NCBI RefSeq assembly: GCF_001308015.1 | Contig: NZ_LGYH01000007.1 | Location: 62,001-126,000 of the forward strand | Reading direction: 5' to 3' | DNA: 64,000 bases | From: Neisseria sp. 83E34 | GTDB lineage: Bacteria > Pseudomonadota > Gammaproteobacteria > Burkholderiales > Neisseriaceae | In this document: positions 25,552-28,265 of the stretch, piece after piece | Position numbering within the stretch: the stretch's first letter is position 1 | Layout: the number at the start of each line of letters is the position of its first letter | Translations under genes and position numbers: made by a program | The notes under the pieces: model-generated | Told to the model about the DNA's origin: nothing | Seen by the model: the letters and a program-made list of their open reading frames with translations, nothing else | Databases searched by the model: none

Positions 25552-26967
25552 TTAAAACATTTTCACCAATGATAATCCGACTTCATTTTGCCGGTATCGA
25601 TACATCCATTTGATGTTGCTGTTTACCCGACGGTGTTTGAATGTAAAAGTCGGTTTCATGCCGGCAATGCTCCAGCGGTCGGCGCCTACGTTTAAGATGT
25701 AGATTTGTTCGTTATCGCGGCGGCGTTTTTCAAATATGCCGTCTTCACTTTTGTAGGAACGGTGCTGAAAAATTGCATGGGCGGAAGCGTCAAAGCCATT
25801 GGCAAACTGCTTGGCAGCACCCACGCGCAAAGCCGGCTGACGGTAGTCGCCCTGGCCGTCTTCGGTTTTGCGCTGTTGCCAGTCCAGGCCGCCGAAGAGT
25901 GCCCAGTCTTCACGCGGGCTGTAGGATAAGGTGTTGTACACAGCCAGCAACGTGCCATCGTTATGCGTATCTTCTTCGTTGAAATACTTGAGCTTTTTCC
26001 ACTCGGTTTCAGTGTTCCACGACCAATTGCCTTTGTTTTCGTTCCATTCGGCACGCGCACCGTAAGCGCGGTGTGAGGCATGGCTGCCTTCGGCGCTCCA
26101 TTCCCACAAAGGCGATAAGGTGAATGAGCGGCGGGCATTGGTAAACTGGTAACCGGCGCTGAGATTGAGCGTGTGTTCGTTATGCTCTTGATGATTGCGG
26201 TAAACTCGGCCGAAAGCCAACGCACGCGCAGCGATGCCGTGATGGCCCTGCACTTGCCAATGTTTGGTCGCAGCGGCTTCGTATTTGATACCTAAAGCGC
26301 TTTCCGGCTCCGGTGAACGCCAATAGTTGCCGATGCATTCTCCTTCAAATTCTTCCTCGCAATAAAAACCGCCCGCTCCTTCGTTGACATTGCTGTTCCA
26401 CACGCCGCCCACATTTAATGAACCTTGCCAGCTTTGGCGCTTGTCTATGGCTGTCTGAAAAGACTGTATGTTGCTTAAAACAGGTTCGGGCAACGGCTCT
26501 CGCGCAGCTTTGGCAAATTCGGCTTCGGCTTCGCGGTTTAGGTGGTCGTCAAATAATAAGCGCGCCAAATCGAGGCGTCCGCGGGTGAAGTCGGGTTGGC
26601 GTTGCAGCAGGGTTTCGTATTTTTGCCGCGCTGCTTTCATATTGCCGTCGGCTTTGCTGATTGCGGCATCGGCAAACAGGGCTATGTCTTCATCATGATC
26701 CGGCTCTTGCCGGTATTGCACCAATAAGCGGCGCGCTGTCGGCCAGTCGCTGTTGTTGACCGCGAGAAACAGGGCTTCACCTGTATCTTGTTGGGTTGCT
26801 TGCCCAGGGGTTTCGATGCCTGTCTGAAAAGCGTTGTCGTCTACGTTTTTTTTCTCCTGCACTTGCACCGCCTGCCGGGTATTCTGCCAAAGACGCTGCG
26901 CCGTATCGTCTGCCGCAAAAGCAGGCAGGGAAACAGCCAGCCAAAGATACATGGTTTTTTTTAACAT
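25552..26967 (-). CDS. Surface lipoprotein assembly modifier (Slam) outer membrane translocon
   Basis: This 471-residue protein has a signal peptide of about 18 residues (ending AFA), an N-terminal helical TPR-like domain at about 55-175 (LARLLFDDHLNREAEAEFAKA), and a C-terminal DUF560 beta-barrel at about 185-471 with many aromatic alternating strands and a final Phe. Slam proteins move specific lipoproteins or soluble proteins across the outer membrane of Neisseria, Moraxella and Acinetobacter. Directly upstream on the same strand is a protein with a TbpB-like C-terminal barrel motif, the expected cargo. A DUS is translated in frame as FQTGI near residue 49. Confidence 0.9.
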   Translation of the reverse strand: MLKKTMYLWLAVSLPAFAADDTAQRLWQNTRQAVQVQEKKNVDDNAFQTGIETPGQATQQDTGEALFLAVNNSDWPTARRLLVQYRQEPDHDEDIALFADAAISKADGNMKAARQKYETLLQRQPDFTRGRLDLARLLFDDHLNREAEAEFAKAAREPLPEPVLSNIQSFQTAIDKRQSWQGSLNVGGVWNSNVNEGAGGFYCEEEFEGECIGNYWRSPEPESALGIKYEAAATKHWQVQGHHGIAARALAFGRVYRNHQEHNEHTLNLSAGYQFTNARRSFTLSPLWEWSAEGSHASHRAYGARAEWNENKGNWSWNTETEWKKLKYFNEEDTHNDGTLLAVYNTLSYSPREDWALFGGLDWQQRKTEDGQGDYRQPALRVGAAKQFANGFDASAHAIFQHRSYKSEDGIFEKRRRDNEQIYILNVGADRWSIAGMKPTFTFKHRRVNSNIKWMYRYRQNEVGLSLVKMF

Positions 26968-27084
26968 ATATGCCTGTCTGAAAAGTTTGGGGGTTGGTTT
27001 TTCAGTGATTCAACTACTAAAGGCCCACTTTATTAAGCAGGCCTTCTATATGGATTAATCTTTATAGATTAAAGTTCCGTGATA

Positions 27085-27813
27085 TTATTTTTTGGTGCCG
27101 CCGAAAGCTGTATCCAAGTTGCGGTTGGTTTTGAACTTGGTTACACCGGCCAGGCTGGATGCACCTTTGCCGAAGAAGTGGCCTTCGGTTTTACCGTAGT
27201 GGCCGTTGGCAACTGCATGGCCTTTGAATGAGGCTTTATGCGGGTTGATGCGAGAATGGATATCCATTTTCACATTTGAGTTCTTCATAGAACCGGCCAA
27301 GGTGCGTTTGCCGAAATCTGCATGCAGCTGACCGTGCAACTGGTTGTTACCGTTGTAGTTGTTGATGCCTTTCACGTTGTAAGTGGCTGTACCAGACATC
27401 GGCATATCGGTAGCACGTTTGTCGCCGGAGTAGAAAACGCCGCGGTTTTTGCCTTTCACATATTCGTTACCGTTCCACTCGCCATAGTAAACTTCAGAAC
27501 CGCCGCTTTTAATGGTGTTGAAAGCGAACTTACCCATGTAGTTACCATGTTTTTGGTTGTGCGCATGAATGGTTTTCACACCGTTTTTGTCGGCACCGGC
27601 ATGGTAGTGGTTCAAATATTTGTAGTGAACATGCGATTTTTTGGCTACTTTTTTCAGCAATTTTTCGCCCACTTCTTCAGAGGCCGGTTTGCCCCATTTT
27701 ACTTTCTTAGCCGGCACCCAGCCTGCATCTTGATAGTAATAATCGGAACCGGCATAAGCGCCTGAACACAGCAAAGCAGCCATCAAAGTCAGCGCGGTTT
27801 TTTTGATATTCAT
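27085..27813 (-). CDS. Candidate Slam-dependent secreted protein with TbpB-like C-terminal barrel
   Basis: This 242-residue protein starts at 27813 behind a strong AAGGAG site. The signal peptide ends AYA before GSD. A Cys lies in it (LLC) but without a good lipobox, so the product is probably soluble rather than a lipoprotein. The mature N-terminal half is rich in His, Lys and Tyr (HVHYKYLNHYHAG; TIHAHNQKHGNY). The C-terminal end (EGHFFGKGASSLAGVTKF, then DTAFGG) matches the eight-strand barrel ending of TbpB, HpuA and hemophilin-type cargo. It is followed by Slam 117 bases on. A haem-binding role is possible from the histidines but not shown. Confidence 0.8.
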   Translation of the reverse strand: MNIKKTALTLMAALLCSGAYAGSDYYYQDAGWVPAKKVKWGKPASEEVGEKLLKKVAKKSHVHYKYLNHYHAGADKNGVKTIHAHNQKHGNYMGKFAFNTIKSGGSEVYYGEWNGNEYVKGKNRGVFYSGDKRATDMPMSGTATYNVKGINNYNGNNQLHGQLHADFGKRTLAGSMKNSNVKMDIHSRINPHKASFKGHAVANGHYGKTEGHFFGKGASSLAGVTKFKTNRNLDTAFGGTKK

Positions 27814-28265
27814 AACGAACTCCTTAACGTAATGGACATTAGCAAGCCGCTTGCCACAGCTTTGAATAATCATCGCTGCATACGAAAAGCCCGCATTGCC
27901 CGTTGGGGGGATAATTTATAAGCTTTTTTAATTTCTATGGGCTCATTCTAAGCAAGTAAAGTTATGACAGAATTAGCGGATATTTAAATTGGATAAACTT
28001 GTGTATGATTATGTATAAAGCACACAGGCTTTGTGTTAAGCCCCATAAGATACTTGCTTGATTTTTTTTAAAATAAACTGAAACAACAAACAGTTAATTT
28101 AAACATTAAGCAACAAAAAGCATTAATCTGCTATATTCGGTTTGCTAATTAAAAACATGGCGCACAAAATGCCCTTACCTTACCGCACAAGCGCCAACTT
28201 GCTGTTGAAAATAACAGATACGGCTTTTAAAGTAACACCGAAAATGGCCGACAACATAAACCAAA
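27814..28265. other. AT-rich non-coding region
   Basis: No supported gene lies in this gap between the divergent Slam-cargo gene and the S-formylglutathione hydrolase gene. It presumably holds the promoters of both. I could not identify a clear Fur or other operator by eye. Confidence 0.5.

What the first reader, a model, noticed from the sequence alone, without database searches (positions are those of the whole stretch)
25552..27813. Slam translocon beside a candidate soluble, histidine-rich cargo
The cargo candidate ends with the EGHFFGKGA...DTAFGG pattern of Slam substrates but has a signal peptidase I-type signal and no proper lipobox. It resembles secreted hemophilin-like proteins more than surface lipoproteins. 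The mature N-terminal half has many His, Tyr and Lys. No TonB receptor is adjacent. It may be a new Slam cargo with an unknown ligand.
Basis: partly seen in the sequence, partly recalled or inferred. Interest (0 to 1): 0.7.

Follow-up and report, generated by a model that had tools for sequence, protein, structure and literature searches.

The report
Rewired secreted relative of heme carriers
A Neisseria-type bacterium carries a gene pair for an outer-membrane export channel and the secreted protein it most likely exports; the protein has the shape of known heme-scavenging proteins but its branch of the family lacks their usual heme-gripping residues, partner receptor and iron switch, and appears to be controlled by a stress-sensing system instead.

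The parts
27085..27813 (-). Cargo gene, 242 aa, soluble hemophilin-like Slam/T11SS cargo
27751..27813 (-). Signal peptide, residues 1-21, signal peptidase I type (AYA|G)
   Evidence: read from sequence; alignments of the 12 relatives
27547..27633 (-). His-rich stretch of the handle (residues 61-89); lineage-specific, not conserved
27454..27654 (-). HphA_N (handle) match, residues 54-120
   Evidence: 31.1 bits, cut-off 22
27091..27411 (-). HphA_C / TbpB_B_D eight-strand barrel, residues 135-241
25552..26967 (-). Slam (T11SS outer-membrane translocon), 471 aa, TPR plus SlipAM barrel
27945..27976 (-). Conserved promoter element CTAAT-N6-ATAAC ... TAGAAT: 5-6-5 direct repeat plus -10-like box; 131 nt between it and the cargo ATG; the only match (up to 2 mismatches) in the 64-kb window to a pattern made from this and the related sites
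26971..26982 (+). 12-mer TGCCTGTCTGAA (wadsworthii-type DNA uptake sequence; name recalled) between cargo and Slam
   Evidence: 76 copies in the window

Best explanation
A two-gene secretion unit. The cargo is made with a Sec/SPI signal, crosses the inner membrane, and is passed over the outer membrane by the adjacent Slam, which recognises its C-terminal barrel, so it is released as a soluble, strongly basic (pI about 9.9) protein. Its relatives in the same genus are receptor-linked and mostly Fur-type hemophilins, but its clade does not keep the axial heme histidines, the linked HphR-type receptor or the Fur box, and has a promoter of the type that precedes the genome's own PmrA/QseB/BqsR-like two-component operon and PepSY-protein genes. 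Most likely it is made under envelope or cation stress (candidate signals: metal cations, cationic peptides, pH or CO2) and acts outside the cell by binding and holding a ligand (a metal, a porphyrin or a polyanion) rather than feeding a dedicated receptor. Shown by sequence: family, fold model, pairing with Slam, missing His columns, missing HphR-type receptor and Fur-like box, shared promoter. Inferred: secretion by this Slam, binding of that response regulator, extracellular sequestration or defence.
For: Family and fold. Clade: 12 of 46 genus genomes; one branch, 100/99, on barrel columns. Its Slams group with those of two receptor-linked loci (L047, L051) at 99/100. HphR-type receptor beside the cargo in 9 of 9 sister loci and 0 of 12 clade loci, and in 51 of 58 named loci; no match better than E 2e-12 in 3 of the 12 genomes, own included. 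Axial columns: His in 0 of 12 at both. Fur-like box (14 or more of 19, shuffle fraction up to 0.04) upstream of cargo or receptor in 6 of 9 sister loci, 0 of 12 here. Promoter in 12 of 12. Exact pattern in 46 genomes: 17 sites, reversed-pattern control 0; the 7 sites not at this cargo are independent of how the pattern was made: 5 carbonic anhydrase, 1 PepSY-RR-HK operon, 1 isochorismatase. Up to 2 mismatches in 12 genomes: 55 sites, control 18; of 46 non-cargo sites I examined 30, not chosen at random: 17 PepSY, 3 PAP2, 3 carbonic anhydrase, 1 DUF533, 1 ferric-reductase-like, 1 isochorismatase, 4 unassigned. A response-regulator gene follows 0.6-1.4 kb downstream of a site on the same strand in 6 of the 12 genomes; best NCBIfam hits PmrA and QseB, below their cut-offs. 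BqsR's box is TTAAG-N6-TTAAG (PMC4682146, passages), the same 5-6-5 layout.
Against: HphA_N passes its cut-off over residues 54-120, so some heme binding cannot be excluded; H89 of this one protein falls opposite a His of the Vibrio hemophilin in a pairwise alignment. Lack of both His columns is not confined to receptor-less cargo: two receptor-linked ones (L102, L112) lack both, and 4 of 9 sister cargos have no His exactly at the second column (three have one within three columns, one has none). Two of 12 clade loci have another TonB receptor nearby: in G049 a hemoglobin-type one, 1.5 kb past Slam on the other strand; in G030 a siderophore-type one 313 bases past Slam on the same strand. Three of nine sister loci show no clear Fur-like box, and this genome's own heme-receptor promoter, meant as a positive control, scored only 14 of 19 at shuffle fraction 0.06. 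Basic pI is shared by several sister cargos. Regulator binding rests on sequence alone; 16 of 46 non-cargo sites were not examined. The Slam tree does not itself show one clade (p-AU 0.22). Mature residues 1-23 are modelled with very low confidence.
Confidence: 0.47

Rival explanations
1. It is still a working hemophore. Heme is held by other residues (Tyr, or the local His cluster) and handed to an unlinked receptor such as the HmbR-like one beside heme oxygenase in this genome.
For: Hemophilin fold; HphA_N match; 777-aa TonB-dependent hemoglobin-type receptor (TIGR01786 over cut-off) next to heme oxygenase at G000:C37; a hemoglobin-type receptor 1.5 kb from the clade pair in G049; receptor-linked cargos L102 and L112 also lack both His columns; a conserved handle Tyr, Y64.
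Against: No invariant handle His and no His at either axial column in 12 of 12; no Fur-like box better than shuffles in 12 of 12; stress-type promoter in 12 of 12.
Confidence: 0.28
2. It is a metal-binding Slam cargo: the His/Lys/Tyr-rich handle holds Zn, Cu, Ni, Co or Fe, for uptake or detoxification, like the non-heme cargo CrpC of Xenorhabdus (called 'cobalt receptor protein' in PMC12282271).
For: HxH pairs in the window protein; CrpC is a precedent, and the Xenorhabdus side group, which I take to be CrpC-like, also lacks both axial His columns (11 of 11 rows, two of them truncated); regulator type close to metal-responsive ones.
Against: His count falls to 1 in two clade members and no His is invariant; no metal transporter was recognised beside the pair across the clade. 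That the Xenorhabdus group is CrpC was not tested.
Confidence: 0.15
3. It is a host- or surface-binding protein (adhesion, complement or host-protein binding, as for fHbp or HpuA) that only shares the Slam-cargo scaffold.
Confidence: 0.1

Closest known systems
Hemophilins HphA (Acinetobacter), Hpl (Haemophilus haemolyticus), HrpC (Xenorhabdus)
   Different: HphA H43 and H106 (PMC8560813, passages) not kept, no HphR-type receptor beside it, no Fur-like box, different promoter in 12 of 12
TbpBBDsol cargo of T11SS subcluster 1B (PMC8406197) and 'haemophilin-like 1' soluble cargo (PMC12282271)
   Same: Soluble, single barrel, paired with a DUF560 protein
   Different: Described there by structure and co-occurrence with TonB, receptors and heme oxygenase; a branch without HphR and under a two-component-type promoter is not mentioned in the passages I saw
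CrpC of Xenorhabdus cabanillasii (cargo named 'cobalt receptor protein')
   Same: Slam cargo with a non-heme name; the Xenorhabdus side group here, which I take to be CrpC-like, also lacks both axial His columns
   Different: The side group is a separate clade with another handle sequence, in another genus
BqsRS of Pseudomonas and DbfQRS of Vibrio (PepSY plus two-component modules)
   Same: 5-6-5 direct-repeat operator; PepSY genes next to the two-component genes or under the same promoter element
   Different: No Slam cargo appears in the passages I saw; the Neisseria half-site reads CTAAY, not TTAAG

Membership tests
Slam / T11SS outer-membrane protein | TPR_Slam domain plus SlipAM (DUF560) barrel | tested here: met
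   72.8 and 175 bits, both over cut-off
T11SS soluble cargo (TbpBBDsol) | SPI signal without lipobox, one C-terminal TbpB-type barrel, adjacent Slam | tested here: met
   (signal read by eye, no predictor run)
T11SS soluble cargo (TbpBBDsol) | Secretion depends on the cognate Slam | not testable with these tools
   needs co-expression and fractionation
Hemophilin (heme hemophore) | HphA_C barrel | tested here: met
Hemophilin (heme hemophore) | HphA_N handle | tested here: met
   31.1 bits over cut-off 22, but only residues 54-120; mature residues before that are not matched
Hemophilin (heme hemophore) | Axial heme histidines (HphA H43 and H106; Hpl uses one) | tested here: not met
   0 of 12 at both columns; sister rows His in 6 of 9 and other-genus rows in 9 of 11 at the first, 5 of 9 and 9 of 11 at the second column. 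Placement of H89 in this one protein is ambiguous
Hemophilin (heme hemophore) | Linked HphR-type TonB-dependent receptor | tested here: not met
   two of the 12 clade loci have a different TonB receptor nearby
Hemophilin (heme hemophore) | Heme binding | not testable with these tools
   needs purified protein
Fur regulon | Fur box upstream (19-bp consensus recalled) | tested here: not met
   best 11-13 of 19 in the 12 loci, shuffle fractions 0.06-0.955; for this cargo 11 of 19
PmrA/QseB/BqsR-type regulon | Direct-repeat operator shared with the two-component operon itself | tested here: met
   this genome's two-component operon site has one mismatch to the pattern
PmrA/QseB/BqsR-type regulon | Regulator binds and activates | not testable with these tools
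   needs gel shift or reporter

The most novel reading that the evidence does not exclude
A T11SS/Slam cargo has been taken out of nutrient uptake altogether: a former hemophilin is now the secreted arm of a PepSY/two-component cation-stress regulon, released to neutralise a toxic ligand (metal, free porphyrin, polyanion or peptide) around the cell, with no return path into it.
Probability: 0.33. Interest if true: 0.75.

Novelty: new variant of a known kind. Interest (0 to 1): 0.55.

Why it matters
Well-studied Slam cargos capture nutrients or host proteins, and hemophilins are treated as heme uptake parts that work with a receptor. A monophyletic branch, present in 12 of the 46 genus genomes searched, without the usual heme ligands, HphR-type receptor and iron switch, and under a stress-type promoter, would show that Slam secretion serves other ends, and it gives a direct test of how cargo handles change function. 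It also offers a concrete operator sequence and gene set for a Neisseria two-component system on which the listings of my literature searches showed nothing on point.

Tried and rejected
Lipoprotein cargo: rejected, no lipobox, and 9 of 12 clade members have no Cys in the signal. His-rich metal site as family function: weakened, His count 1-7 and none invariant. Fur control: best 11-13 of 19, shuffle fractions 0.06-0.955 in the 12 loci (upstream starts of L037, L038 and L044 were set up to 3 nt off in that script). Orphan Slam: the genome's second Slam (G000:C36) has no HphA_C or TbpB_B_D cargo other than this one in the genome. Literature on a Neisseria PmrA/BasR/QseB or PepSY two-component system: the listings showed nothing on point; one passage of PMC9280163 mentions a gonococcal PepSY-domain protein. 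A 2024 paper on the spread of Slam-dependent hemophilins and one on hemophilin homologues are recalled only; the listings (15 of 138 shown) did not show them. PMC4358008 (BqsRS and cationic stress) is not held; I saw only its title, in a reference list.

Full report
What is there. The minus strand carries a cargo gene (27813-27085) followed after 117 bases by a Slam gene (26967-25552). The Slam has both defining domains. The cargo passes the cut-offs for HphA_C, HphA_N, TbpB_B_D and NCBIfam slam_lipo; its nearest solved relatives are hemophilins (8gm3, E 3.1e-31). The genome (2.42 Mb, 40 contigs) has two Slams but only this one cargo by HphA_C and TbpB_B_D. The window holds 76 copies of TGCCTGTCTGAA, which I recall as the uptake sequence of Neisseria wadsworthii; no call names the organism.

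The clade. Of 46 genus genomes, own included, 12 hold a cargo 58% or more identical over nearly the whole length. All 12 are cargo-then-Slam pairs. Flanking genes are shared by some of them (window with L035; L037 with L038; L039, L040, L041 and L042 in part; L043 with parts of two sets) but no flanking gene cluster other than cargo and Slam is common to all. Three match named contigs by length: Neisseria sp. MVDL19-042950, Neisseria sp. HMSC077D05 and N. sicca. A tree of the barrel alone puts the 12 on one branch, 100/99. Their Slams group with the Slams of two receptor-linked loci of the same genus at 99/100; one clade of the 12 Slams is not rejected (p-AU 0.22) but not shown.

Receptor. A large HphR-type TonB receptor (930-1140 aa) lies beside the cargo in 9 of 9 sister loci and 0 of 12 clade loci. 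Among 58 named loci examined, 51 have one; the seven without are three of this clade, L087, L088, L097 and L093 (L056, L087 and L093 are cut short). In 3 of the 12 genomes (G000, G049, G053) no match to HphR is better than E 2e-12. Other receptors: a scan for the TonB barrel finds none within 38 kb of the pair, or none on the same contig, in 10 of 12 (one contig is 5.4 kb). In the other two there is one: in G049 a 707-aa hemoglobin-type receptor (TIGR01786 over cut-off) 1.5 kb past Slam on the opposite strand with a gene between, and in G030 a 723-aa siderophore-type receptor (TIGR01783 over cut-off) 313 bases past Slam on the same strand. Neither resembles HphR beyond short weak stretches, and they differ from each other, so I read them as chance neighbours, but the first fits the hemophore rival.

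Heme ligands. HphA binds heme by H43 and H106 (PMC8560813, passages). Those columns hold His in 0 of 12 clade rows; in 9 sister rows 6 and 5; in 11 other-genus rows 9 and 9. Of the four sister rows without His exactly at the second column, three have one within three columns. Two receptor-linked rows (L102, L112) lack both, so absence alone does not prove loss of uptake. No handle His is invariant in the clade.

Iron switch. The best match to a recalled Fur consensus within 330 bp is 11-13 of 19 in all 12, shuffle fractions 0.06-0.955; 6 of 9 sister loci have 14 or more with fraction up to 0.04 before cargo or receptor, uncorrected for 18 tests; this genome's heme-receptor promoter scored 14 at 0.06. 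A gonococcal relative of HrpC is reported iron-repressed (PMC8406197, passages).

What the clade has instead. All 12 carry CTAATT-YT-N3-M-TAA-N11-TANAAT 97-140 bases before the start codon: two pentamers six bases apart and a -10-like box. It is the only match in the window, mean 0.03 in shuffles (the pattern was made from these sites). The exact, slightly stricter pattern has 17 sites in 46 genomes and none when read backwards. Ten are this cargo, by construction. The other seven are independent: carbonic anhydrase in five genomes (three tested with Pfam; two read as near copies; 83 to about 460 bases away), a PepSY-RR-HK operon, an isochorismatase-domain gene. At up to two mismatches 12 genomes give 55 sites, control 18, so part of these are chance. 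I examined 30 of the 46 non-cargo sites, chosen by what the tool returned and by recurrence, not at random: 17 PepSY, 3 PAP2, 3 carbonic anhydrase, 1 DUF533, 1 ferric-reductase-like, 1 isochorismatase, 4 unassigned. Five PepSY proteins, two PAP2, DUF533 and the ferric-reductase-like one were tested with Pfam, the other PepSY by BLAST to four of those and the third PAP2 by BLAST. In this genome all six sites were examined: cargo; the PAP2-DUF533-RR-META-HK operon; PepSY; PepSY_2; one 280 bases before a 614-aa ORF; one with no clear gene; the control gives two. A response-regulator gene 70-100% identical to this genome's follows 0.6-1.4 kb downstream of a site in six of the twelve genomes. Its best NCBIfam hits are PmrA (207 bits, cut-off 330) and QseB (198, cut-off 345); the kinase's is QseC (197, cut-off 475): same kind, not the same proteins. 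Pseudomonas BqsR, Fe(II)-responsive, binds TTAAG-N6-TTAAG (PMC4682146, passages); PepSY proteins near two-component genes are a widespread module (PMC12714742, passages).

Interpretation. The simplest account is that a receptor-linked, Fur-controlled hemophilin was copied within the genus, lost its HphR partner, heme histidines and iron switch, and came under a PepSY-associated PmrA/QseB-type system while keeping its Slam and barrel. Its product should be secreted under envelope or cation stress and act outside. The ligand is open: heme by other residues, metals, or polyanions. My confidence by step: family and fold 0.97, Slam pairing 0.9, two-component control 0.75, no dedicated receptor uptake 0.55, extracellular stress role 0.4.

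Naming. The axial-histidine and HphR-linkage features were tested and not met, so I file it as a soluble T11SS/Slam cargo of the HphA-fold superfamily, not as a hemophilin.

Noticed in passing
G000:C36:158448-159203 (L002:1498-2775): Second, distant Slam (425 aa) with no cargo recognised by HphA_C or TbpB_B_D; perhaps an orphan translocon.
   Followed up: partly
L160:4446-7528 (G000:C37): Heme oxygenase next to a 777-aa hemoglobin-type TonB receptor, a possible unlinked heme route.
   Followed up: partly
L159:2283-6128 (G000:C37): PAP2-DUF533-response regulator-META-kinase run, PmrA/QseB-like, preceded by the same promoter element (one mismatch).
   Followed up: yes
L125, L128, L133, L134, L135: Beta-carbonic anhydrase preceded by the same promoter element in five genomes.
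   Followed up: partly
L074:2288-4665, L091:1052-4440, L097:5692-7956 and similar: Xenorhabdus side group of cargo-Slam pairs without either axial His column; single or doubled cargo genes.
   Followed up: partly
L044:8414-10585 (G030) and L036:9415-11538 (G049): Siderophore-type and hemoglobin-type TonB receptors near two clade pairs; the two are unlike each other and unlike HphR.
   Followed up: yes
G048:C1:1653305-1655962: HphR-type receptor present in pieces with several in-frame stops: apparently decaying.
   Followed up: no
L054:5735-7558 (G033): Hemophilin locus with a short cargo ORF and a Slam split over two ORFs; looks decayed.
   Followed up: no
L036:2542-7936 and L053:1193-6664: A clade pair in one genome sits near the same three genes as a receptor-linked cargo in another, suggesting exchange at one site.
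   Followed up: no
window, whole: 76 copies of TGCCTGTCTGAA and 4 of AGGCCGTCTGAA in 64 kb.
   Followed up: no
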